Virus record (IMG/VR): IMGVR_UViG_3300034120_001490
Span: 1-57,049 of that record
Strand: one strand, 5' to 3'
Source: a virus
Length of the DNA: 57,049 nt
Position numbers and translations under genes: made by a program
Part shown: in pieces, positions 8,931 to 21,195 of the stretch
Layout: each line of letters opens with the position of its first letter
Position numbering within the stretch: position 1 is the stretch's first letter
Notes under the pieces: model-generated
Told to the model about the DNA's origin: nothing
The model's database searches: none
The model's input: the letters and a program-made list of their open reading frames with translations, nothing else

Positions 8931-9160
8931 TCGACCCGCGCGGCATGACGTTGATTGATTGGGCCGATAGCGTTATACTGTCGGTTGGTGATGCGTGGTC
9001 GTTTGGTCGGCTTGACGACGAGAACGACTGGCAAGATTGGGCGGTAGCCTTCTTGAAGGCGTCGCCCTTTTCAACACGCGCCGTGCCCGATCCGTATCAA
9101 TTCGATGACTGGCGCGAGTGGGCAATGCGGGTCTACCCGATGCTTGAGGGACAGGGCTAA
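8927..9160 (+). CDS. Small acidic tail-region protein
   Basis: The gene encodes 77 residues, rich in Trp and Asp (IDWADSVILSVGDAWSFG, FDDWREWAMRVYP). It has no membrane segment or known catalytic motif. From memory this Trp-rich small protein recurs beside tail genes of environmental podoviruses. It overlaps the genes on both sides (ATGA at its start, one base at its end), so it is translated with the tail operon. Function is unknown. An assembly or capping role is guessed only from context. Confidence 0.65.
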   Translation: MIDPRGMTLIDWADSVILSVGDAWSFGRLDDENDWQDWAVAFLKASPFSTRAVPDPYQFDDWREWAMRVYPMLEGQG

Positions 9161-11595
9161 TGCGGTACGGCGAAGACAACTACGAGAACAACTTCCTCGA
9201 CGACTTCTCCGGCTACGGCGGCTACGGCGGCTACGGCGGCTACGGCGGCCTGCCACCGGTCACGACGTACACGCCACCGGTCGCGACGTACACGCCGCCT
9301 GCCGCAACGTACACGGCTCCGATGGGCGGTCTTACGGCTGCGCCCTACAGCCCCCCGGAGTTAACGCCTGAGTTCCTCGCCGAATTGCAAGCATCCGCCG
9401 CCCTGATGAAGCAGAAGATAGAGGCGGCGTCTGACCCCAACCGCAACGCCGCCTTCGACAAGTATGTTGCCGATCAGGCCGCGAAGGGCGTTGAGGTCGC
9501 CTCGACCTATACTGGCGGCGGTGGCCCGCTTGGCAGTGGCGGCGTACTCGGCGTAACTGATTTCGCTCCGGCTTTTGATCCCGCGAACCCGGCAGGCACC
9601 ACGGGGCAGGTCGTTCGCTTTGATCCGGGGCGAATGAACGCGCCGGTCGTTTTCCAGCCCGGCCAACAGTATGTGCTGACCGATGCCTCCGGCGAGAATG
9701 TCGTGGGCCGCGCCTCTTCGGTTGAGGAACTACAGAAGCTCGCCGCCGCGCAGGGGAACATGCCCTACGGTTTCCAGTTGTATCAGGCCGATCAGCAAGG
9801 GAACTACAAACCCGGCACGCAACTTTTCGGTGAGACAGATCCGCGTACTAAAGGACTTATGGGGGCTATTGTAAATTACGGATTACCAATTGTAGCAGGT
9901 ATTGCTACTGCAGGAGCCAGTTTTCTACCTGCATTAGCGGCCTCTGCCGCCGCGTCAGGTGCCTCCAAATTAATGACAGGATACACACCAGAAGACGCAG
10001 CAAAAGCCGCAGCGATTGCGGCTGCTACAAGAGGCGTGCTAAAAGGCACTGGCCTTGAAGACAGCATTGGTGGTCTATTATCAGCAAAAGGCTCTGTTGT
10101 AGGCAACGCCGTGAACCCCGGTTTCTACGTTCCCGGAACCGTTATTCCAAAATTTGTGGCCCCCACGCTTTCCGGTCTGGGCAGCACGGTTGGTACTCTT
10201 GCGGCCGCACCTGTGGCGGGCGAAATTCTTGTTCAAGGCGCGCGCAACGCCGTCAGTCCTGCGCTGGCTTCCGCAATCACCGGCGGTTTGACCAGTCTCG
10301 CCCCCGCTGTATTCGACCCTAGCAGCATCCCGCAGTTTCAATCTCCCGACGTGAGCAACGCGGAAACCTCGCAGCAAGAAGCAGAAGCGTTGGCTGAGGC
10401 GGATCGCATTAAACGCTTTGAAGCTGAAGCAGCCGCTGCTGCTGCTGCCGCTGCTGCTGCCGCTGCCAACACTGGTGCGCTTCCTGCTACGACAGCAACT
10501 ACCGCTGAGCCAGAAGCGTTGGCTGAGGCGGATCGCATTAAACGCTTTGAAGCTGAAGCAGCCGCTGCTGCTGCTGCCGCTGCTGCTGCCGCTGCCAACA
10601 CTGGTGCGCTTCCTGCTACGACAGCAACTACCGCTGAGCCAGAAGCGTTGGCTGAGGCGGATCGTATTAAACGGTTTGAAGCTGAAGCAGCCGCTGCGGC
10701 CGCTGCTGCTGCTGCTGCTGCCGCTGCCGGAGGAGCTGGGAGCGATACCAGCAATACCAGCACCGACAAGAAGGACGGCGTACTGTCCAAGATCAACCCG
10801 GTGCGTGCGGGCCTATCGGCGTTGGCCGGCCTCGTGTCCTTGCTGGCTGGCGGCGGCGGCGGGGGCGGCAGGGGTGTAGCCACGGGCAACGCCGGTGCCG
10901 GCACGCGCGCCTCGCTCGATCCGATCTTCAGCGCGAAGCTGCCGGCGGCCAGCCCCCAGTACTCGGGCATGTCCCTCGCGCCCCGCGACATGCGCGGCGT
11001 GGACTTCGCGCGCTACGGCTACGGCCCCGGCGCGTCGTTCTTCGAGAACGTGCCGCGCAACCCGGAAGAATACAAGGCGGCTCTGGCCGCCAACACCCGC
11101 CCCGCGCGGCCTTCAGGCGCGCTGAACCTGCCGCCGATGCCAATGCCCCAAATGGAGGCTGGCACTACCGCAGACCCCACTGCCGCCGCCACCAGCCTCA
11201 TCCGCACGTACATCCCGTCCGCCACGGACGCGGAGATCACGGATTTCTTGGCGACCGAGGAGGGCCTCCAGTTCCTCGCCAATTTCGGCGTGCCCGTTCG
11301 CCGCGCACGCGGCGGTTCCATGCGCGGCACCGGCACCTCGCGCGGCAGTTACGCCGTCAAGGGAGCCGGCACCGGCCGCAGCGACGAAATCCCCGCGCTG
11401 CTGAGCGACGGGGAGTATGTCATGGACGCCGAGACGGTCGCCATGCTGGGCGACGGTTCCAGCGAGGCGGGCGCAAAGCGCCTCGATGACTTCCGCATCA
11501 ACGTCCGCAAACACAAGGGCCGCAACTTGGCCAAGGGCAAGTTTAGTGCTAATGCTAAACGGCCCGAAAAATACCTCGCTGGAGGCCGCGCATAA
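9160..11595 (+). CDS. Large low-complexity virion protein with tandem Ala repeats
   Basis: The gene encodes 811 residues. It starts with a Gly-Tyr run from a 9-bp repeat (four GGCTACGGC copies from 9211) and TTYTPP-like Pro/Thr repeats. A hydrophobic Ala/Gly-rich section follows (about 228-390; VNYGLPIVAGIATAGASFLP could contact membranes). Next come 43-residue units of EALAEADRIKRFEAEAA plus a poly-Ala run. The C-terminal ~90 residues (GRSDEIPALLSDGEYVMDAE) form a conserved module seen, from memory, at the end of many phage structural proteins. Bases ~9840-10300 are visibly more AT-rich than neighbours, suggesting acquired sequence. An internal or ejected protein is likely, but the role is inferred. 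Confidence 0.6.
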   Translation: MRYGEDNYENNFLDDFSGYGGYGGYGGYGGLPPVTTYTPPVATYTPPAATYTAPMGGLTAAPYSPPELTPEFLAELQASAALMKQKIEAASDPNRNAAFDKYVADQAAKGVEVASTYTGGGGPLGSGGVLGVTDFAPAFDPANPAGTTGQVVRFDPGRMNAPVVFQPGQQYVLTDASGENVVGRASSVEELQKLAAAQGNMPYGFQLYQADQQGNYKPGTQLFGETDPRTKGLMGAIVNYGLPIVAGIATAGASFLPALAASAAASGASKLMTGYTPEDAAKAAAIAAATRGVLKGTGLEDSIGGLLSAKGSVVGNAVNPGFYVPGTVIPKFVAPTLSGLGSTVGTLAAAPVAGEILVQGARNAVSPALASAITGGLTSLAPAVFDPSSIPQFQSPDVSNAETSQQEAEALAEADRIKRFEAEAAAAAAAAAAAAANTGALPATTATTAEPEALAEADRIKRFEAEAAAAAAAAAAAAANTGALPATTATTAEPEALAEADRIKRFEAEAAAAAAAAAAAAAAGGAGSDTSNTSTDKKDGVLSKINPVRAGLSALAGLVSLLAGGGGGGGRGVATGNAGAGTRASLDPIFSAKLPAASPQYSGMSLAPRDMRGVDFARYGYGPGASFFENVPRNPEEYKAALAANTRPARPSGALNLPPMPMPQMEAGTTADPTAAATSLIRTYIPSATDAEITDFLATEEGLQFLANFGVPVRRARGGSMRGTGTSRGSYAVKGAGTGRSDEIPALLSDGEYVMDAETVAMLGDGSSEAGAKRLDDFRINVRKHKGRNLAKGKFSANAKRPEKYLAGGRA
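10384..10730 (+). repeat. 129-bp tandem repeat, about 2.7 copies
   Basis: Units begin at 10384, 10513 and 10642, exactly 129 bp (43 codons) apart. The first two are almost identical in DNA. The third carries a few changes and ends after its Ala-coding stretch. Each unit encodes an amphipathic charged helix followed by a long poly-Ala segment made of GCT/GCC codons. Near-identity implies recent duplication or slippage, with the frame kept. Confidence 0.92.
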
Positions 11596-12467
11596 TGTCC
11601 GCTGAAACTTTTATCTCTGACGGTCGGCCGGCCAACGCCAACCCATACGCCTCGACCGAACAGACGGTGCTGCCGGACTATTACACGGACGCGGCGATGC
11701 AGACCCTCGCCAACCAGACGGCGGTGTCTGCGCGGCCGACGCCCATCTATCCGGGGCCGCGCATCGCCGACTTCACGGCCCTGCAGAACATGGCCTTCGA
11801 GCAGACGCCGGGCGCGGCGAATGCCTACCAGCCGTACTTGGCGCAGGCCGGCCGCAACACCGCCGACGTGACGCAGCAGTTCATGAACCCCTACACCAGT
11901 CAGGTCGTTGACCGGATTGGTCAGATGGGCACGCGCGCCCTCAACGAGCAAATCCTGCCCGGCATCGAAAGCTCGATGATCCGCGCCGGCCAGTTCGGCG
12001 GCACGCGGCAGGCCGAGCTGATGGGTCGCGCCGTGCGCGAGGCCACCGAGGGCATCTCGGCGCAGCAATCGCAGGCGCTGGAGCGTGGCTACGCGCAGTC
12101 GCTGGGCGCGGCCCAGCAGGAGCAAACGCGGCAGGGCGGGTTGGCCTCGCTGGCGCAGCAGCTCGGCCTGCGGGGCGTGGACGCACTGCAGACGGCGGGC
12201 GGCCTGCAGCAGGGCCAGACGCAGCGCAACCTTGACCTCGCCTTGTCCGACTTCGAGCGGCAGTTTGCTGCGCCGCAACAGAACATCGATGCCATGATCA
12301 AGACGATGCAGGGTCTCTCGGGGGCGATGCCGAAGGGCGTCCTGAAGCAGGGTTACGGCACGGAGCCCACGGACGTTCCGGCGTCGGGGCTGGAGACGGC
12401 CGGGGCAACCGCCCTCACCTTCCTCGCTTTGATGAGAGAGCTTGGTCTTTTCCCCACAAAACCCTGA
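11595..12467 (+). CDS. Gln/Ala-rich helical internal protein
   Basis: The gene encodes 290 residues. The N-terminal ~60 are extended with Tyr and Pro (TPIYPGPRIADF). The middle is Gln/Ala-rich helix (QQSQALERGYAQSL, QLGLRGVDALQTAGGLQQG) typical of ejected internal virion proteins. It begins at the last base of the preceding gene. No membrane segment or catalytic motif was seen. It is part of a five-gene run of large helical proteins (9160-16060) that probably form the inner core or are ejected with DNA. Confidence 0.6.
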   Translation: MSAETFISDGRPANANPYASTEQTVLPDYYTDAAMQTLANQTAVSARPTPIYPGPRIADFTALQNMAFEQTPGAANAYQPYLAQAGRNTADVTQQFMNPYTSQVVDRIGQMGTRALNEQILPGIESSMIRAGQFGGTRQAELMGRAVREATEGISAQQSQALERGYAQSLGAAQQEQTRQGGLASLAQQLGLRGVDALQTAGGLQQGQTQRNLDLALSDFERQFAAPQQNIDAMIKTMQGLSGAMPKGVLKQGYGTEPTDVPASGLETAGATALTFLALMRELGLFPTKP

Positions 12468-12480
12468 CGGAATTGGTCAC

Positions 12481-13122
12481 ATGGAAGACGAAGAAGACTT
12501 CACCAGCCCGCTCGACTTCGCCACCAGCCTCTCGGGGATGGCGCGGCAGGCGGACGTGGATGTTAAAACGCAGATCCAGAAGTATCGCGAAATGGTCGAG
12601 GCGGGCACGAGGCGCATGCGCGAGCAGCGCATCGGCCCGTCCAGTACCGAGCGTTTGCTCGCCCTCGCACAGGCCCTAGGCAAGCCCACGCGCACCGGCA
12701 AGTTCGGTGAGCGCATAGGCTTGATCGCCGGCACCCTCGGCGGCCAAGAGAGCGCCCGGCGCGAGGCGGAGCTGGCCCGCGCAGACACGCTGGAGAAGCT
12801 CGGCCTGAAGAGCGCGGAGTTCGATGTGGAAGCCGCGCAGACGCGTGCGAACAGGCTATCGACTTTGGCGGCGCGGCAGTTGGCGGCGGAGCAAGCAGCG
12901 GCTGCCAGAGGCGGCGTCGGCGTGGTTGTCGGGGCGGACTTCATCCCCCGCAATAAACGCACCGGCGCAATCATCAAGGAAGCGCCGGCTAACGTAGTGT
13001 ACACGCTGCAGGACTATATAAACGACCCGGAACAGACGCCCGAAGACAAGCGCGCTGCCTTGCGTAACTTCGACGGCACGTACGGCTTCGGTGCAGCTCA
13101 AATGTATCTCGGAGGTAAGTGA
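12481..13122 (+). CDS. Coiled-coil internal/structural protein
   Basis: The gene encodes 213 residues. It is highly charged and helical to about residue 145 (SARREAELARADTLEKLG), then has a compact C-terminal part (GVGVVVGADFIPRNKRTG). ATG 12481 is preferred. The upstream in-frame start would be TTG inside the previous gene with no better ribosome-binding site. The stop overlaps the next ATG (TGATG). No family recognised. A helical virion component is inferred from composition and neighbours. Confidence 0.6.
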   Translation: MEDEEDFTSPLDFATSLSGMARQADVDVKTQIQKYREMVEAGTRRMREQRIGPSSTERLLALAQALGKPTRTGKFGERIGLIAGTLGGQESARREAELARADTLEKLGLKSAEFDVEAAQTRANRLSTLAARQLAAEQAAAARGGVGVVVGADFIPRNKRTGAIIKEAPANVVYTLQDYINDPEQTPEDKRAALRNFDGTYGFGAAQMYLGGK

Positions 13123-13850
13123 TGCCCCGTCGTCCGCCACCCACCTTTGGCAACGCGCCTCAGACCGAAAGCCGTTCCGCGCAGCTCAGACAAGATCTCA
13201 GCGCTGCTGATCTGGCTGCCAAGTACGCCGCGATGGATGCCGACCGTCGTCGCCTCGCCATGGATCAAGCGCGCCTCGATCTGCAGCTTAAAGCGCCGCT
13301 GCCCGAGGCTCCCAAATCGAAGGCCCAGAAAGCCGCAGAAGCCGTAGCACTCGCAGAGGCCAACGTGTTGGGCGCGAAGTCGGCAGAACAGAGAATGGCG
13401 CTTCCGGGGTTGGAAACAACGGTTGCTGCGGCTTTCAAAGGCGCTAAAGACTTGTTGGCGCATCCCGGCTTCGAGGCGACTGTTGGCATGCCGAACCCGT
13501 TCAAGGGCGGCTTCGGCCCCCTCGGAACCGTGCGCGGCACCCCCGCCCGCGACTTCCAGACTTTGCTTAACACGTACACGTCTAAGCTCTTTCCGGCGGC
13601 GGTTGCCACCCTTCGCGGCACTGGCCCAATATCCAATGTTGAAGGTCAAAAAGCGTTGGAGTCGTTGGCCAATCTTCCGACTGATACAAGCGAGGCGGAG
13701 TTCAAGCGGCAGCTTCAAACTAGCGTGGACACTCTTGCCCGTGAGGTGGACGTTGCCCGCAAAAAGGCGAGCATGGGCGGCAGCCCTTTCACCTACGAAG
13801 AGTTGATGCGGGAGAAGCGTGCCCGTGACGCAAAGAAGGGGCAACGCTGA
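13122..13850 (+). CDS. Helical internal/structural protein
   Basis: The gene encodes 242 residues. A strong ribosome-binding site (GGAGGTAAGTG) places the start at ATG 13122 rather than the GTG one codon earlier. The N-terminal third is charged helix (SAQLRQDLSAADLAAKYAAMD). The middle is Gly/Pro-rich (GMPNPFKGGFGPLGT) and the end is helical and basic. It overlaps both neighbours. It resembles the preceding gene in size and layout but without clear sequence identity. No catalytic motif was seen. Confidence 0.58.
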   Translation: MPRRPPPTFGNAPQTESRSAQLRQDLSAADLAAKYAAMDADRRRLAMDQARLDLQLKAPLPEAPKSKAQKAAEAVALAEANVLGAKSAEQRMALPGLETTVAAAFKGAKDLLAHPGFEATVGMPNPFKGGFGPLGTVRGTPARDFQTLLNTYTSKLFPAAVATLRGTGPISNVEGQKALESLANLPTDTSEAEFKRQLQTSVDTLAREVDVARKKASMGGSPFTYEELMREKRARDAKKGQR

Positions 13851-16060
13851 TGGCTGAACCATTTCGCGTCAGCATCCCTCATCCGCGTAGCCGCGTCGAA
13901 GACCTCGATGATAAAGAACTCGACTATCTGCTCGCCGAGCGCACCAAGAGCGACAGCGAGTTGTCGCAACTATCCGACGAGGATTTGAACGCGCTGCTGA
14001 TGCCTTACGCGCGATCAGGTGCTGAAGAGCCCGAGATCGTGGTCACGGCACCGCGCATCGCGCAGCCTGCATTCGACCTCACAGCCGGCGAGATGCTGGC
14101 GGGCGGCGCGCGTGAGATGGCGGGCGGCGCTCTCTTTGAGTTTGCCGACGAGGCGGAGGCGGCTGCCCGCGCTCCCTTCTCCGACAAGAGCTATGACGAA
14201 ATCTTGCGCGAGATCCGCCAGAGCCGTGCGCGCTTCGCCGAGGCTGAGCCGGGTGCCGCGATCGCGCTGAACATGGCCGGCGGCATCGCGCCCATGCTCA
14301 TCCCCGGCGTGGGGCTGCTGGGCAAGACCGCGCAGGCTGCGACGGGCATCAGCAAGCTGGCGTCACCGCTGGCGCGTACTATGGCCACAGGCTCTCTGCA
14401 GGGCGGGATCTCGGGCATTGGTGCCGGAGAAGGCGCGGAAGAGCGCGCCACCATGGGCCTCGCAGGCGCTGGCCTTGGCGGCACACTGGGCGGCGCTATG
14501 TTCGGCGGCGGACGCGGCGCGCAGTTCCTGCGTGACGCCTATCGCGCTCGCGGCGGCGGCGACGAGGCCCGCGCGGCCGAGACGGCTGCCGACATCTTGG
14601 CCGGCCGCATCGAGGGGGCTCCGGCCGACCTGCGGACGCGCCTTGATCTGGAGCGTCGGTACGGCGTGCCCACTACGCTCGGCACCGCATCGCCGGAGCT
14701 GGCCACGCTGACTGAGACCGTCATGCGCGAGCCGTCGGCCTCTCGCGCCGCGCTCGCCACCAGTCTTGCCGAGCAGCAGGCCGGCGCACCGCGCCGCGTG
14801 CAGACGCAAATCGACATGGCCTTTCCGGGCACGCCGGACTACTTCGCCGCCGAAGAGCGCATCCTCGACACGCTGCGGCAGAACGCCAATGCCCGCTACG
14901 GTGCGGCCTATGCCGCCGCGCCGGAGGTGCGCGACCCGCTCATCTTGGGGGCGCTGAACAATCCCGCCATCCAGTCCGCCTATCAGGACGCCCTGCGTAT
15001 GTCTCGCGACGAGATGGCGGCGGCGGCACTGCGCGGCGAAGACCCGGCGCAGTACGCCATGAAGGAGTTCATGGAGCCCATACTGGACGCAGAGGGCAGC
15101 CTCGTCGGCCTCAAGGCCAGCGGCAAGATGGTGCCTGACTTGCGCTCGCTGGACGCGGTCAAGCGCGCCTTGGACGCGCGCGTGAACGGCCTGTACGCCT
15201 CCGGGCAGGGCGGCGAGGCCACCGCGCTGAAGGAACTGCGGAACGCCTTCGTTGACCGCCTCGATAAGGTCGGGCCGGCGGAGTATCGGGCTGCCCGCGC
15301 CCAGTACAAGGGCGACATCGAAATCAAGGAGGCGCTGGAGGCCGGGCGCGCGGCCAACAAACTGCGCTGGCAGGAAGTCGGCAAGCTGGCGCGCGAGTAC
15401 TCGCCGGGTGAGCTGCAGGCATTCAAGACCGGCCTCGTGCAGAACTTGATGAAGCGTTTTGAGGACACGTCGCGCAAGCGCAACTTCGCCGACGAGATCA
15501 TCAACACGCCGAACCTTCGCAAGTCGCTGCAGGCCGTCACCGATCCGGGCGAGTTTACCGTTCTGGACGCCGCGCTCAAGCGCGAGGCAGAGCTGTTCAA
15601 GGAAGGCAGCCGCGTCATGGGCGGCAGCCAGACCTTCGGGCGCGCGGCGGAGAAGCAGGCAATCGAGGAGCGCATCGCGCAGGGCGACGTTCCCGCTGCG
15701 GTTGACCTGATCCTCAATCCAACGCCGGGCAACATCTTCCGTCGCGTCATGCAGGTGACTTCCAACATGCGTAACGCCAACGTGTCGCGCGCGACGTTCA
15801 ATCAGCTCGCCAAGATGCTCAGCGCCGGCTCTCCGCAGGAAATCGATGAGGTGCTGACCGCCCTTGCGGCTGCAGCGCCCGTCCGCAAGGCGCGCGAGGA
15901 GGCGTTTGAGAGCGGCGCGACCCGTGCCGGCACGGCGGCCGCCCGTACGATCGCGCCATCGCCAGAAATGGAGAAGGAAGAGCTTGAAGATCCCGGCGAG
16001 CTTGTTATCCCCGACATCGACCTGAGCGGTCTGTCCACCATGCCCGGAGGCCCGCAGTAG
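13850..16060 (+). CDS. Large internal virion / DNA-ejection protein
   Basis: The gene encodes 736 residues. The N-terminal ~55 are charged (DDKELDYLLAERTKSD). An Ala/Gly-rich hydrophobic region at ~135-230 (GGIAPMLIPGVGLLGKTAQ, GLAGAGLGGTLGGAMFGGG) could insert in or cross a membrane. The remaining ~480 residues are long charged helices ending in an acidic tail. This plan matches podovirus internal core proteins ejected into the host to form a DNA conduit. No lytic transglycosylase motif was found. It ends where the paralogous effector-like pair begins (GTG 16060 overlaps its TAG). Confidence 0.62.
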   Translation: MAEPFRVSIPHPRSRVEDLDDKELDYLLAERTKSDSELSQLSDEDLNALLMPYARSGAEEPEIVVTAPRIAQPAFDLTAGEMLAGGAREMAGGALFEFADEAEAAARAPFSDKSYDEILREIRQSRARFAEAEPGAAIALNMAGGIAPMLIPGVGLLGKTAQAATGISKLASPLARTMATGSLQGGISGIGAGEGAEERATMGLAGAGLGGTLGGAMFGGGRGAQFLRDAYRARGGGDEARAAETAADILAGRIEGAPADLRTRLDLERRYGVPTTLGTASPELATLTETVMREPSASRAALATSLAEQQAGAPRRVQTQIDMAFPGTPDYFAAEERILDTLRQNANARYGAAYAAAPEVRDPLILGALNNPAIQSAYQDALRMSRDEMAAAALRGEDPAQYAMKEFMEPILDAEGSLVGLKASGKMVPDLRSLDAVKRALDARVNGLYASGQGGEATALKELRNAFVDRLDKVGPAEYRAARAQYKGDIEIKEALEAGRAANKLRWQEVGKLAREYSPGELQAFKTGLVQNLMKRFEDTSRKRNFADEIINTPNLRKSLQAVTDPGEFTVLDAALKREAELFKEGSRVMGGSQTFGRAAEKQAIEERIAQGDVPAAVDLILNPTPGNIFRRVMQVTSNMRNANVSRATFNQLAKMLSAGSPQEIDEVLTALAAAAPVRKAREEAFESGATRAGTAAARTIAPSPEMEKEELEDPGELVIPDIDLSGLSTMPGGPQ

Positions 16061-17493
16061 TGCGCTCCACCGACTTCCCCTTCGCCGTGACGCCGCGCCG
16101 CGAGGGGCCAGACTACACTGCGCCTAGCGCCGATGTTGCCGATCTGCTCAATCCAACGGACATCATTGGCCGTGGCCGCCTTGAGGCGCGCGAAACATCG
16201 TGGCGTGATCAGCTCCGCGACAAATTGGCGGTGCGCGTTGGGCGCAGGAACGCCGACAAGCTGATTGACTTGGCCGACTTCACGCCCGTTGGTGCCGCGT
16301 TCGTCGGCAACGAGGCAGCGCTGGCTGCCCGCGAAGGGCGTCGTGGAGCGGCTGCGGCCAATGTGGCCCTTGCCGCACTGCCGTTGCCCGGCGCAGGCAA
16401 GGCACTGAAGAAGGTGGCGAAGGCACCGCTGGCCGTCAAGCCGCAAGGCATAGTCGCCTATCACGGCAGCCCGCACCGCTTTGACCGCTTCGACATGAGC
16501 AAGATCGGAACAGGAGAAGGCGCGCAAGCGTATGGCCACGGGCTGTATTTCGCGGAGAGGGAAGCGGTGGCGAAGGCATACCGTGACGCACTCGCGGAAA
16601 TGCGCGTTGGCTTTAAGGTTAACGGCAAACGCATAACGCCCGGCGCAGGCGATCTGACGCCTGAAGAAGAGGCGGCTCGCTTCGTAATTGGTATGAGCGG
16701 TTTTGACAATCCGCAGAGCCGAGGCGCTGGCACGACGCTGTCGGCCCCCAAAGCTGTTCGTGAAGCGTTTCTCTCGGTGCCTTACAACCGATTTGAAAAC
16801 GACAAGGACAAGATTGCGCGCATATTGGCTGAGTGGCGTGCCAGCAAGGTCGCCTTCGACAAGGCGAGCAAAGGCTCCATGTATCAAGTCCGCATTGACG
16901 CCGATCCGGCTGATTTTCTGGACTACGATGCGCCGTTGAGCGGGCAGAGCGAGAAGGTGCGTGGAGCGTTGGATACTTTCCAACTAATTACACAACCGCG
17001 CGAGGGCTTATCGCTTTTCCCCGGAACAAAATTGCGAATTGAGCAAGACCCTGATTTACCGGAGTTTTCAAAATACTTCATGGAAACGGAAAACGGCACT
17101 CGCACGCGCCTGTTGCCCGGAGATTTGAAAAACATGATTGCACAGAACCTTGATGAAGTAACTGGCAAAAACGTAGTGTCTACTGTAGCCAACCAGTTTG
17201 GGGGGCAAGATGCCGCAACCCGCGCACTGCGTGAAGCCGGCATCCCCGGCATCAAATACCTTGACCAAGGCAGCCGTGGCGCTGGCGACGGCACACGCAA
17301 TTACGTCGTGTTCGATGACAAGCTGGTCTCCATCCTCAAGCGTTACGGCTGGGCTCCGGGCATGGCTATCCCCGCCGCAGCGATGGAAGAGTATGAAGCC
17401 GAGCAAGAATTCGCCCGTGGTGGTCTCGCCGTGACGCCCGACAACTACAACGAAAAAGTGCGCCTGCTGCGCGAATACGGGATGCTTGACTGA
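16060..17493 (+). CDS. Probable ejected ADP-ribosyltransferase (ART-PolyVal type)
   Basis: The gene encodes 477 residues from a GTG start overlapping the upstream stop. Residues 1-~128 form a module shared with the next gene. Residues ~131-425 form an ADP-ribosyltransferase-like domain: VAYHGSPHRFDRFD (His135), the KIGTGEGAQAYGHGLYFAE block (Tyr163) and a late NYVVFDD strand (415-421). These match, from memory, the ART-PolyVal domain of phage and plasmid polyvalent proteins, where His/Tyr bind NAD+. The likely job is to modify a host protein after delivery with the phage DNA. The domain has a large insert (~190-390). The C-terminal ~40 residues are charged. Substrate unknown. Confidence 0.78.
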   Translation: MRSTDFPFAVTPRREGPDYTAPSADVADLLNPTDIIGRGRLEARETSWRDQLRDKLAVRVGRRNADKLIDLADFTPVGAAFVGNEAALAAREGRRGAAAANVALAALPLPGAGKALKKVAKAPLAVKPQGIVAYHGSPHRFDRFDMSKIGTGEGAQAYGHGLYFAEREAVAKAYRDALAEMRVGFKVNGKRITPGAGDLTPEEEAARFVIGMSGFDNPQSRGAGTTLSAPKAVREAFLSVPYNRFENDKDKIARILAEWRASKVAFDKASKGSMYQVRIDADPADFLDYDAPLSGQSEKVRGALDTFQLITQPREGLSLFPGTKLRIEQDPDLPEFSKYFMETENGTRTRLLPGDLKNMIAQNLDEVTGKNVVSTVANQFGGQDAATRALREAGIPGIKYLDQGSRGAGDGTRNYVVFDDKLVSILKRYGWAPGMAIPAAAMEEYEAEQEFARGGLAVTPDNYNEKVRLLREYGMLD

Positions 17494-17880
17494 TGCGCTC
17501 CACCGATTTCCCCTTCGCCGTGATGCCGCAGCGTCTGCAGCGCGGCGGCGAGTTCAGTGTGGACTACAGCGCGCCTAGTGCCGATGTCGCCGATCTGCTC
17601 GATCCAACGGACATCGTCGGCCGTGGTCGCCTTGAAAGCCGCGATACGTCGTGGCGTGATCGGCTCAAGGACAAACTGGCGGTGCGCTTCGGGCGCAGGA
17701 ACGCCGAGCAGATGATGCAGGTGCTTGACTTCACGCCCGCCGGTGCCGCGTTCGTCGGCAACGAGGCGGCTCTCGCCGCTCGTGAGGGTAAGCGCGGCGA
17801 GGCGGCTGCCAACGTGGCGCTCGCCGCGCTGCCAATTCCCGGCGCGGGTAAGGCTGCGAAGAAGGTGGCGAAGGCCGCTG
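17493..17880 (+). repeat. Second copy of the 16060-16430 N-terminal coding module
   Basis: DNA from 17493 to about 17880 is clearly related to 16060 to about 16430. Identical runs of 15-20 bases are interrupted by codon-position changes, and the second copy has a short insertion near 17528-17560. Similarity stops abruptly at the Lys/Ala linker, where the two proteins diverge completely. This is the pattern of a duplicated module joined to two different cargo domains. Confidence 0.88.
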
Positions 17881-19133
17881 CTCCGGCGAAGAAAGTAGCA
17901 GCACAAGCCACCTCCTCGGCGTACTCAACGCCGCGCCAAGTTATCGCCAAAGAGTTCGGTCGCGACATCGCGCAGCGCCTCGACGGTATCGTGCCGGCAG
18001 ATGCGCCGATCACGGAATGGCGCGCAGCCGCAGAAAACTTGAGCAGCCCAGACGTAGCTATGTCGAACCGGCGCTTCACGCCGGAGTTCAAGCGGCCCGG
18101 CGAGAAACCGTTGGCGACGCAGATGGGTGAGCAGGGTCTGCCGGTGCGCGGCATGGACTTGGTGGAGGCGCAACACCCCAGCCCCTTCGGCGTTTTCTCC
18201 AAATACAAAACGCCGAAAGACCCCCTCGACACCGAGGTCGTCGCGGAACCCTACGCGGTCATGCCGACTGATAGGCGGTTTGACCCCCGCCGGCTGGAAG
18301 GCGCGCGGGTCGTGTCACTGCTCGCAGACAAGTCGCGCGCCGGTGACCGGCTTCGCAGTATAGATGGCTCGCCCGTGGACGTTTACACCCAAGGCGGCCC
18401 GATGCATGCCGCGCTGCAGGAGGCGCTTGGGGGTAGCTCTGCTTTTGCCAACACGGGAGGGGGGCTTACCTCGCTCCGCAAACAGATAGCTGCAGGACTG
18501 GAAGAAGGGCGGCCGGTATTTGGTGTCACAACTACCATGGGGCCATCGTCACTGAACCAGACTGTCGATATGGTAGATATCTTGCACCAGATGGCGCAGA
18601 CGAGCCCTATCAGCAAAAGCGATCTGGCAGACTTCAACGAAAAAGCTCGATCTCTGCTCCCCGGTTACGCCGGCCTGCTTGACGAAGATGCTGTGCGACA
18701 GCTTCAAGGGGCGACGCAGGGCCAACGAAAGGCCTTCGTCAAACTTATGGATAACGCAGATGCCCTAGCGCGCGGGTTACCGAATGTGCCGGCGGCGCGT
18801 TTTGGGCTCACCGATCCCAATCTTGTTGACGTACCGTCTGGCGTTTCTGGTTACTCCTTTGTAGAACTGGGCCCTGAAAGCCTTCAAAAACTAGACAGCA
18901 GCATCAAGAATAGATCCTATCTCGAAGACTTGACAGGTAAGTTTGGGGGACGCGGGCCGCTTGTTCCGTTCAGCACTATGTTCAGTGACTTCATTAAAGA
19001 ACGCAGGGAAGCGGGCTTGCCCGCAGGCTCTGATCTCAGGTCACTTGAGTTTCAGAAGCCGATCCAAGACATGACCCCCGAGGCCTACGATCGGCTCATG
19101 CGCTATCTGTCCAAGATCGATGACCCTTATTGA
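17493..19133 (+). CDS. Paralogue of the preceding protein with a different C-terminal domain
   Basis: The gene encodes 546 residues. The first ~125 closely match the preceding protein (MRSTDFPFAV start, SADVADLLDPTDIVGRGRLE, FTPAGAAFVGNEAALAAREG, PIPGAGKAAKKVAKA). After a Lys/Ala linker the protein switches to an unrelated ~415-residue domain with phrases such as RRLEGARVVSLLADKS, VYTQGGPMHAALQE and FGVTTTMGPSSLNQTVDM. From memory, similar domains recur in large phage-ejected proteins, but I cannot name a reaction. The gene starts with ATG overlapping the upstream TGA and its 3' end overlaps the convergent gene at 19096 by 38 bp. A host-directed effector is inferred. Confidence 0.7.
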   Translation: MRSTDFPFAVMPQRLQRGGEFSVDYSAPSADVADLLDPTDIVGRGRLESRDTSWRDRLKDKLAVRFGRRNAEQMMQVLDFTPAGAAFVGNEAALAAREGKRGEAAANVALAALPIPGAGKAAKKVAKAAAPAKKVAAQATSSAYSTPRQVIAKEFGRDIAQRLDGIVPADAPITEWRAAAENLSSPDVAMSNRRFTPEFKRPGEKPLATQMGEQGLPVRGMDLVEAQHPSPFGVFSKYKTPKDPLDTEVVAEPYAVMPTDRRFDPRRLEGARVVSLLADKSRAGDRLRSIDGSPVDVYTQGGPMHAALQEALGGSSAFANTGGGLTSLRKQIAAGLEEGRPVFGVTTTMGPSSLNQTVDMVDILHQMAQTSPISKSDLADFNEKARSLLPGYAGLLDEDAVRQLQGATQGQRKAFVKLMDNADALARGLPNVPAARFGLTDPNLVDVPSGVSGYSFVELGPESLQKLDSSIKNRSYLEDLTGKFGGRGPLVPFSTMFSDFIKERREAGLPAGSDLRSLEFQKPIQDMTPEAYDRLMRYLSKIDDPY

Positions 19134-19293: not shown

Positions 19294-19634
19294 CACTTGC
19301 TCCTCTCAATGATCCGCTGGCCGAAGAAGACGATCTTCTCGCCGTCGTAGACCGCGCTGTCCTGACCCGGCTTGCCCCGGCCCTGCCGCAGCGCCGCGAC
19401 GCGCCACGCCGCCTTGAAGGCGTTGGCCACGTCATACTCCATGTTCAGCGCCTCGATGATGTCGTTGCACTCGGCCGTGTACGGCTCGCCGCCGGACGTG
19501 GGCCGATCGACGCGCACCTTGTAGTAGTCGGTGCTACCGCCGGTCAGCTTGGCCGGCTCATGCGAATGGACGCAGGCCATGACCCCCGAGATCTTATCGT
19601 GCACTGCGAGGCATACCGAACAGGTGTAGCTCAT
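19293..19634 (-). CDS. DUF3310-like protein with N-terminal Cys motif
   Basis: The gene encodes 113 residues. The N-terminal CSVC and later Cys/His residues (CVHSH) could bind zinc. The central part (STDYYKVRVDRPTSGG, ECNDIIEALNM, NAFKAAWR) resembles, from memory, the DUF3310 family, which includes a T7 gp1.7-like nucleotide-kinase relation. Catalytic function here is not shown. It lies in an operon with the helicase, overlapping it by ATGA. Assignment to nucleotide metabolism is tentative. Confidence 0.6.
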   Translation of the reverse strand: MSYTCSVCLAVHDKISGVMACVHSHEPAKLTGGSTDYYKVRVDRPTSGGEPYTAECNDIIEALNMEYDVANAFKAAWRVAALRQGRGKPGQDSAVYDGEKIVFFGQRIIERSK

Positions 19635-20989
19635 TTCTTCCTCCGCTTCATTGCTTCCAGCAGGATCTCCTGCGTGCTCTTCTTCGACGTGAGACGATCC
19701 ATGACGAGGTCATCCACCGTGTCGCGGGCGAGGATCGGGTAGACGAACACCGGCCGATCGTAGCCGGCCTGCGCCTGCCGCATCGGCCCGATGCGCTCGA
19801 TGATCTGCATGTGCTCCTCGAGGTTCCAGTTGACCCCGTAGAAGGCGAGGATGTTGCCCCCGTCCGCGAGGTTCAGGCCGTGGCCCGCCGATGCAGGGTG
19901 AGCGAAAAGTAGTTCGATTTCCCCCCGGTTCCACTGTTTGATCGTATCAGGGTCAGCGTCCAGCACCCGGCCTTTAGGGTAGCGCTTGCGTAGCCGGGCC
20001 AAGTCGTGTTTGAAATTGTAGGCCACCAAGACGGGCGCGCCATTGGCCTCCTCAATGACGCTGTCCAGCGCCTCCAGCTTGGCATCGTGCACCGCCTCCC
20101 AGTTGCCGTACTCATCGGTGTACAGCGCCCCGTTGGCGAGCTGCAAGCACTTCTGCGTCCGCACCGCCGCGTTGGCTGCCTCGACGCCCTCGCTGTTGAG
20201 GATCGTGTACATCTCCTCCTCCATCTCGTCATACGCGCGGCGCGCCGCCGGCGGCAGGTCGATGTAGATCGGGCTGGTGATGGGCTCATCGACGGGCAGG
20301 CCGCGCACGGTCAGGCAGATGTCCTTGAGCCGCTCCTGCACCTCCTCCTGCGTGTGGTCGTAGGGCACGAGGCTGTAGCCGTCGTAGCCCTTGCGGAACC
20401 AGCGCTCGCTGAAGGCGCTGAACGTGCGGCCTAGCCGCTCTCCCTGATCAAGGAACCAGCTCTGCCCCCAAAGGTCTTTAACGCCATTGGGCGCAGGGGT
20501 GCCTGTCAGGCCGATGAAGCGCGTGACGTGCGTGTGGGCCACCTGACCCAGCGCACGCGCCCGTGAGCCGCCCTGACGCAGCCTGAAGCTCTTCAGCCGG
20601 GTGAACTCGTCGGCGACCACGGTGATGAACGGCCACGCGTCGCCGAGCGCCTCGCGCAGCCAGACGAGGTTGTCGTAGTTGGTCGTGTAGATGTCGGCCG
20701 GCGTGTCAAGCGCCGCCTGACGCTGCTTCGGCGTGCCGGTGATGACGCTGACGCGCAGGTGCGACAGGTGCGGCCACTTCTTGACCTCGTCCGGCCACGT
20801 GGAGCGCGCCACGCGCAGCGGTGCCAGCACCAGCACTGGGTACACGTCCTCGACCACGGAGAGCGCCTCCAGCGCCGTCAGGGTGGTGACGGTCTTGCCG
20901 CCGCCCATGGGCATCCACAGGGCGGCCCTGCGCTCCTTGTACAGGTGCGCGAGGGCCTCCCTCTGGTAGTCGTGCGGCTTGAAGGTCAC
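19631..20989 (-). CDS. SNF2/SF2-family DNA helicase or translocase
   Basis: The gene encodes 452 residues. GTG 20989 is chosen because it overlaps the upstream TGA (GTGA). A longer frame would run through the upstream gene. Motifs: Walker A PMGGGKT (27-33), DEF replacing DEAH (127-129), SF2 motif III LTGTPAPNG (161-169), motif V HPASAGHGLNL (~354-364) and a motif VI-like IIERIGPMRQ (~386-395). This is the phage SNF2-like group usually encoded near PolA, DUF2800 and DUF2815 genes. It should use ATP to move along or remodel duplex DNA during replication or recombination. Confidence 0.88.
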   Translation of the reverse strand: MTFKPHDYQREALAHLYKERRAALWMPMGGGKTVTTLTALEALSVVEDVYPVLVLAPLRVARSTWPDEVKKWPHLSHLRVSVITGTPKQRQAALDTPADIYTTNYDNLVWLREALGDAWPFITVVADEFTRLKSFRLRQGGSRARALGQVAHTHVTRFIGLTGTPAPNGVKDLWGQSWFLDQGERLGRTFSAFSERWFRKGYDGYSLVPYDHTQEEVQERLKDICLTVRGLPVDEPITSPIYIDLPPAARRAYDEMEEEMYTILNSEGVEAANAAVRTQKCLQLANGALYTDEYGNWEAVHDAKLEALDSVIEEANGAPVLVAYNFKHDLARLRKRYPKGRVLDADPDTIKQWNRGEIELLFAHPASAGHGLNLADGGNILAFYGVNWNLEEHMQIIERIGPMRQAQAGYDRPVFVYPILARDTVDDLVMDRLTSKKSTQEILLEAMKRRKK

Positions 20990-21195
20990 AGTGCTTCCCA
21001 AGGCTGCGGCCGGTGGAGCGGGCCACCTTCGCCTGCGAGCCACTCGGCGGTGTGTTCAGACGGAGCGCCCTTCCAGTACAGGCGGCCGCCGACATACCAG
21101 CGAAGCTGACGGCCACCGCGCGAGGTCTGGACGACGCGGGCGACGCGCTTGCCGGCGGGGGTCAGGTCGTAGTTGGTGTTGATGACGATCTGCAT
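20986..21195 (-). CDS. Small basic early protein
   Basis: The gene encodes 69 residues (MQIVINTNYDLTPAGKR at the start, WYVGGRLYWKG in the middle). ATG 21195 is chosen because a GGAGAC ribosome-binding site and the shared ATCAGCAAC leader lie immediately upstream. A frame running further upstream would cross the operator. It is the first gene of the operator-F transcription unit and is coupled to the helicase by GTGA. Basic and Arg-rich, it may bind nucleic acid. No family recognised. Confidence 0.7.
   Translation of the reverse strand: MQIVINTNYDLTPAGKRVARVVQTSRGGRQLRWYVGGRLYWKGAPSEHTAEWLAGEGGPLHRPQPWEAL

What the first reader, a model, noticed from the sequence alone, without database searches (positions are those of the whole stretch)
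16060..19133. Duplicated delivery-type N-terminal module carrying two different C-terminal domains
Seen: two adjacent genes share ~125 N-terminal residues (and related DNA), then diverge fully at a Lys/Ala linker. One continues into an ART-PolyVal-like ADP-ribosyltransferase, the other into an unrelated ~415-residue domain. They follow a run of large internal-type virion proteins. Inference: a phage analogue of polymorphic effectors, in which a common packaging or ejection module carries exchangeable cargo that acts in the host right after DNA entry.
Basis: partly seen in the sequence, partly recalled or inferred. Interest (0 to 1): 0.85.

Follow-up and report, generated by a model that had tools for sequence, protein, structure and literature searches.

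The report
Phage tagged, swappable effector protein cassette
At one fixed spot just behind its DNA-injection genes, this virus carries two proteins with the same front end and different back ends, and in related viruses the same front end carries many other enzymes, which looks like a loading tag that lets a virus swap the proteins it probably injects into bacteria.

Summary
Confirmed: ORFs 16060-17493 and 17493-19133 share ~125 N-terminal residues (77% identity) and then diverge completely; both are intact. These genes lie at one locus, directly behind the podovirus-type ejection genes. Conversely, the same ART rides on three different N-termini. The constant part can shrink to a 19-residue leader (MRSTDFPFAV...). 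A short motif, [FLM]AV[KTNR], recurs at the N-terminus, at module/cargo linkers and at C-terminal GG tails, with varied codons. The distal half of the module belongs to a widespread phage pre-cargo module. In other phages ART and the second domain sit in one ~1,340-residue polyvalent protein, so this locus looks like a polyvalent protein split into separately tagged units. Most likely these are virion-packaged, co-ejected effectors on an exchangeable loading module: they work like T4 internal proteins but use polyvalent-protein domains and a different leader. Packaging, ejection and enzymatic activity are inferred, not shown. The ART's third catalytic position is Asn.

The parts
16060..17493 (+). 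Cargo gene 1: N-module A + ART-PolyVal ADP-ribosyltransferase-like domain (477 aa)
   Evidence: 40/40 aligned relatives match PF18760
16060..16425 (+). N-terminal module A of gene 1: leader MRSTDFPFAVTPRR, disordered to ~residue 42, then helices 48-121
   Evidence: AlphaFold2 model
16060..16101 (+). Leader tag (V/M)RSTDFPFAVTPRR, kept when the rest of the protein is unrelated
16426..16449 (+). Module/cargo linker carrying the motif PLAVKPQG
16450..17349 (+). ART-PolyVal domain; invariant H135, Y163 and N414 (N where PARP-type ARTs have E)
17413..17493 (+). C-terminal tail ARGGLAVTPDNY..., a GG tail of the type also seen in ejection proteins
17493..19133 (+). Cargo gene 2: N-module A + phage-specific domain 'C2' (546 aa)
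17493..17876 (+). N-terminal module A of gene 2
17895..18100 (+). Short segment (TPRQVIAKEFGRDIAQRLDG...EWRAAAENL) shared with cargo in L005 and L016
18180..19130 (+). C2 domain; found in small phage proteins and in 1,000-1,700-residue polyvalent proteins; pLDDT 90.5
9160..16060 (+). Ejection/internal virion protein block (811, 290, 226, 243 and 736 aa genes) directly upstream, with overlapping genes
19631..21043 (-). Conserved convergent helicase gene that bounds the variable cassette on the other side in relatives

Best explanation
The two genes are the current occupants of a variable 'cargo cassette' at the end of the ejection-protein operon of a podovirus-type phage. Each product is a leader plus a small helical module, then a lysine/alanine linker, then an exchangeable effector domain. 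In the most likely scheme the leader and module, helped by the recurring [FLM]AV[KTNR] motif and the GG tail, recruit the protein into the assembling head with the ejection proteins. It then leaves the virion with them and the DNA. In the host the ART would modify host proteins, and the C2 domain would do a second, unknown early job. Recombination within module, linker and flanking genes swaps the cargo while leader and locus stay constant. Shown: the module, its repeated reuse, the fixed locus, the reciprocal cargo/leader swaps, and fusion of the same domains in one polypeptide elsewhere. Inferred: packaging, ejection, the role of the motif, and activity.
For: Module A or its leader occurs in 18 further distinct proteins from about 20 other IMG/VR contigs, with ART, DUF7178 (9.8e-15), PcfJ (9.6e-8), GNAT-like, ParB-like and C2-type cargo. 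The locus is the same between ejection genes and helicase, e.g. L006 (ejection gene 91%, helicase 92% identical) and L017 (91%, 96%) with entirely different cargo. Swaps are reciprocal: the same ART on module A, module B (L030) and an MSRAS leader (L015); C2-type cargo on module A and on an MGIVSKLAVKG leader. Module B is homologous to internal virion proteins phrog_5880/phrog_342. Fusion evidence: L062 carries ART and C2 in one ~1,340-residue protein; MW202675 fuses two domains that are separately led adjacent genes in L017. The distal half of module A matches a widespread phage pre-cargo module (hhalign 96.8%, 2.3e-10) that carries ART, LPD23, exoenzyme-type ART and ParB-like cargo. The motif survives redundancy removal: 12 seen against 1.4 expected, 0/1000 shuffles, and its codons vary. 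GG tail: 16/24 cargo proteins, 7/20 ejection proteins, 0/20 other window proteins.
Against: No virion proteomics for this phage or a close relative could be read. The motif and tail were noticed before being counted, and the proteins are related, so the enrichment figures are descriptive. The leader DNA is also highly conserved, so a recombination patch or translation-start role is not excluded for the leader itself. The ART's third catalytic position is Asn in 40/40 aligned sequences, whereas the published clade is described as H-Y-D, so activity is uncertain. The full-length ART model has no significant PDB match.
Confidence: 0.7

Rival explanations
1. The proteins are made late and act inside the infected cell (for instance against superinfecting phages or on late host functions); the N-module anchors or localises them and they are not packaged. 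The shared front end is for localisation, not delivery.
For: They are encoded at the end of the late virion block; the N-module is helical and partly hydrophobic; there are no proteomic data.
Against: They directly follow ejection genes in the relatives; module B is homologous to internal virion proteins; the GG tail is shared with ejection proteins; relatives of the domains lie in polyvalent proteins proposed to be packaged (PMC5512222).
Confidence: 0.13
2. Plain mosaicism: a tandem duplication followed by recombination at a conserved linker gave two unrelated proteins a common front end, with no delivery or loading function for it.
For: Phages are mosaic; leader DNA is nearly identical across contigs; module A itself shows internal recombinants such as L008 gene 2.
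Against: The two copies are old (dS 0.56) yet dN/dS is ~0.27. The same leader is kept on three different N-modules and the same cargo on several leaders, at one locus. The motif recurs with different codons.
Confidence: 0.07
3. Structural or ejection-conduit role: these are further internal virion proteins whose C-terminal domains help form the ejection channel or scaffold rather than act as enzymes in the host.
For: Position in the ejection block; the shared GG tail; a C2-fold protein is annotated 'structural protein' in Flavobacterium phage elemoC; Asn at the ART catalytic position.
Against: Cargo changes completely between close relatives while the ejection proteins persist; cargo includes enzyme-type domains (GNAT-like, exoenzyme-type ART) and conflict-associated domains (LPD23, PcfJ).
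Confidence: 0.1

Closest known systems
T4 internal proteins IpI-III with the capsid targeting sequence (PMC3012670, PMC12373910)
   Same: Otherwise unrelated, variable proteins share only an N-terminal leader and are encoded at variable loci; in T4 they are packaged, injected and block host defences (shown there, inferred here).
   Different: Different phage type. The constant part here is a leader plus a ~100-residue module; the motif recurs in linkers and C-terminal tails; cargo is polyvalent-type domains. Homology to the T4 leader and protease cleavage were not tested.
Polyvalent proteins of phages and conjugative elements (Iyer et al. 2017, PMC5512222)
   Same: Overlapping domain repertoire (ART-PolyVal, ParB-like, LPD23), encoded next to virion genes.
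   Different: Polyvalent proteins hold 2-15 domains in one polypeptide; here each unit is a separate gene with its own copy of the leader, and the same domains are fused elsewhere (L062, MW202675).
MuF polymorphic toxins of temperate phages (Jamet et al. 2017, PMC5576092)
   Same: Constant head-associated N-terminal module and variable C-terminal effector.
   Different: No MuF domain; not beside the portal; no obvious immunity gene downstream; podovirus-type ejection context.
Phage T4 Alt, virion-packaged ART
   Same: An ART proposed to enter with the DNA.
   Different: Alt has an R-S-E active site (PMC5512222); this is an H-Y-type ART-PolyVal family member.

Membership tests
ART-PolyVal (PF18760, Tox-ART-HYD2 clade) | Profile match to the family | tested here: met
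   Window protein 6.6e-6 but below the curated cut-off; 40/40 aligned relatives match, best 5.1e-8; L013 2.9e-13, L160 and L063 above cut-off
ART-PolyVal (PF18760, Tox-ART-HYD2 clade) | Catalytic H (strand 1), Y (strand 2), D (strand 5) | tested here: inconclusive
   H135 and Y163 invariant; the third position, judged by eye against the PARP motif, is N414, invariant N in A10; the published description says D
ART-PolyVal (PF18760, Tox-ART-HYD2 clade) | ART fold by structure comparison | tested here: inconclusive
   Full-length model pLDDT 73.5, no significant PDB match
T4-type internal proteins | Shared N-terminal leader on otherwise unrelated proteins | tested here: met
T4-type internal proteins | Homology to the T4 capsid targeting sequence and cleavage by the prohead protease | not tested
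   No T4 internal-protein family appeared in the Pfam or PHROG results for the two window proteins; the leader was not compared directly and cleavage needs mass spectrometry
T4-type internal proteins | Present in virions and injected | not testable with these tools
   needs virion proteomics
Polyvalent proteins (Iyer 2017) | Two or more functional domains in one polypeptide | tested here: not met
   Each window protein has a single recognised cargo domain; relative L062 meets it
Polyvalent proteins (Iyer 2017) | Domains from the polyvalent repertoire | tested here: met
   ART-PolyVal and LPD23 in the family
MuF polymorphic toxins | MuF domain at the N-terminus | tested here: not met
   No MuF match in Pfam or PHROG scans
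Polymorphic toxin systems | Constant delivery module with variable C-terminus | tested here: met
   Constant module with variable C-terminus; that the module delivers is inferred
Polymorphic toxin systems | Cognate immunity gene directly downstream | tested here: not met
   Gene 2 follows gene 1 with overlap; after 19133 only convergent genes follow

The most novel reading that the evidence does not exclude
The recurring short motif ([FLM]AV[KTNR] here; PVDHDPF[AE] and RALxxA...GG in other lineages) is a lineage-specific address or processing signal placed at the ends of each cargo unit, used by many phages to load, and perhaps cut, diverse co-ejected effectors. Polyvalent proteins and tagged single-domain proteins would be two interchangeable outputs of that one system.
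Probability: 0.35. Interest if true: 0.82.

Novelty: new variant of a known kind. Interest (0 to 1): 0.64.

Why it matters
If packaging is confirmed, the leader or module can be used as a search key to list phage proteins that enter the cell before any phage gene is expressed, including new early counter-defence or host-modifying enzymes. It also links two ideas: giant polyvalent proteins and T4-style tagged internal proteins would be two arrangements of the same cargo.

Tried and rejected
PDB sequence search with the C2 profile: only chance hits at E 0.26-0.67; with the ART protein: none. PDB fold search with the C2 model: the best hits are many YTH domains, but at E~0.5 and TM-score 0.31-0.34 by query length, so a modified-base reader is not claimed. 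PDB fold search with the full ART model: nothing significant. Host search: no relative of the N-module or of TerL in the species-genome collection; the host remains unknown. Module A has no match in 50,697 annotated phage records, so it is known only from metagenomic phages. Defence-system library: no matches. Profile scans with the broad C2 and module alignments failed for lack of conserved stretches and were repeated with closer subsets. Promoter/terminator scan: no excess over chance, so nothing is claimed beyond the gene overlaps. Elemo phage proteomics: no paper describing it was found. The synonymous/non-synonymous test on the leader alone was discarded because the leader search pattern limits amino-acid change.

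Full report
WHAT IS THERE. The window is a whole IMG/VR record of 57,049 bases, a phage with TerL, portal and capsid genes at 37-45 kb, tail/virion genes through 46-57 kb and 0-9 kb, and a convergent replication block on the minus strand. From 9160 to 16060 lie five closely packed genes of internal/ejection type: 811, 290 (PHROG 'DNA ejection protein'), 226, 243 (PHROG 'released from the phage upon host infection') and 736 aa (phrog_5880). The two genes of the finding follow with one-base stop/start overlaps and end the block; the next genes run the other way. The shared N-terminal module is about 122-128 residues at 77% identity, and the homology ends abruptly. The copies are old and constrained: dS 0.56, dN 0.15.

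THE KEY TEST. Two scans of 2.9 million viral contigs, one with the module and one with the ten-residue leader, gave 20 distinct leader-bearing proteins including the window's two. Module A carries: ART (window, L005, L008); C2-type domains (window, L009, L016); a ParB-like domain plus C2 (L029); a GNAT-like domain plus a C2-like domain (L005); DUF7178 (L006 strongly, L008 and its relative L010 more weakly); PcfJ (L007, and its close relative L011). L003 and L004 are near-identical to the window and are not counted as independent. The leader alone, with the rest unrelated, also heads module B (L012, L015, L026, L030) and a 170-residue protein (L013, L017, L024).

FIXED LOCUS, SWAPPED CONTENT. 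In the contigs that reach far enough, the leader gene follows the last ejection gene, and where the contig reaches on, a conserved convergent helicase gene lies beyond the cassette in most of them. In L006 and L017 the flanking genes are 91-96% identical to the window's while the cargo is different. Further leaders appear in the same cassette, MG[IV][VL]SKLAVK and MSRAS, again each with several cargoes. The swap works both ways: the same ART is found behind module A, module B and the MSRAS leader.

SPLIT POLYVALENT PROTEINS. Relatives of the second gene's C-terminal domain were collected by profile. Some are small proteins; many are parts of 1,000-1,700-residue proteins. L062 has ART and C2 in one polypeptide. 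In MW202675 a further domain and C2 are fused, whereas L017 and L024 encode the same two domains as neighbouring, separately led genes. A structure search of viral models finds the C2 fold in a PcfJ-like protein of 1,403 residues, a GNAT-type protein of 1,489 residues and a 'structural protein' of a Flavobacterium phage. The window's pair therefore looks like the separated form of a polyvalent protein.

THE MODULE IS PART OF SOMETHING WIDER. Its distal half matches the N-terminal region of other ART-bearing phage proteins, a module of the form AYxPTWRDRxA..LMGD....ERR..VEGL.GS.GLG.TGM...DFTP.G. A scan with that module shows it in front of ART, LPD23 with and without ART, an exoenzyme-type ART and a ParB-like domain (the ParB-like call for L162 is by eye). 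The AlphaFold2 model shows a disordered first 42 residues, then helices to residue 121, a linker, and the ART region.

A RECURRING SHORT MOTIF. [FLM]AV followed by K/T/N/R appears in the leader, at module/cargo linkers and in C-terminal tails of cargo proteins. After masking related stretches there are 12 instances against 1.4 expected (0 of 1,000 shuffles). It is not enriched in ejection proteins, and close to chance in other window proteins. Codons differ between instances, which argues against a mere DNA patch. L053, found independently through the C2 search, has it again. C-terminal GG tails occur in 16/24 cargo and 7/20 ejection proteins but 0/20 other window proteins. These patterns were noticed before they were counted and the proteins are related, so the numbers are descriptive. 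In other phages some ART proteins carry a different repeated motif at both ends, PVDHDPF.

MECHANISM. I take the constant part as a loading/ejection module and the variable part as cargo acting in the host. Packaging rests on context: operon position, homology of module B to internal virion proteins, shared tails, and published proposals that such domains are packaged (PMC5512222, PMC9503650). It is not shown. Catalysis is also not shown: H135 and Y163 are invariant, but the third position is Asn in all 40 aligned sequences, while the clade is described as H-Y-D.

COMPARISON. [quoted passage not shown] It is not shown to be one. It uses polyvalent-protein domains without meeting that class's multidomain definition. 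It resembles MuF toxins in layout but has no MuF domain. I rate it a new variant of a known kind.

Noticed in passing
L079, L081, L083, L105, L155: ART-bearing proteins of other phages carry a PV[DE][HYNG][DN]PF motif at the N-terminus and in several again at the C-terminus; it may be the equivalent tag of another lineage.
   Followed up: partly
L054-L069 (large C2-containing proteins): Polyvalent proteins often start with (V/I)xRAL/KAxxxA and repeat a similar stretch after a C-terminal GG (e.g. GGAVRKALMIAKGVKKK), another repeated terminal signature.
   Followed up: no
window 9160-16060 and homologous blocks in L005-L030: C-terminal GG tails (YLAGGRA, YMRGGRI, MYNGGLMELARKYR) recur in ejection proteins and cargo proteins but not in other window proteins.
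   Followed up: partly
ejection block of L009, L013, L026, L008: The last ejection gene itself comes in several different alleles (736, 711, 893 and 946 aa types) at the same position; the ejection block is mosaic too.
   Followed up: no
window 18180-19130: Many of the top PDB fold matches of the C2 model are YTH domains (modified-base readers), though not significant (E about 0.5).
   Followed up: partly
L008:11275-12930: One leader copy reads MRSTDSPFAV (F6S) and its module is a recombinant of the two module A subtypes.
   Followed up: no
L013:10519-11604: A cassette protein with an SKLAVK leader joins a ParB-like region (by eye) to an ART-PolyVal domain (2.9e-13).
   Followed up: no
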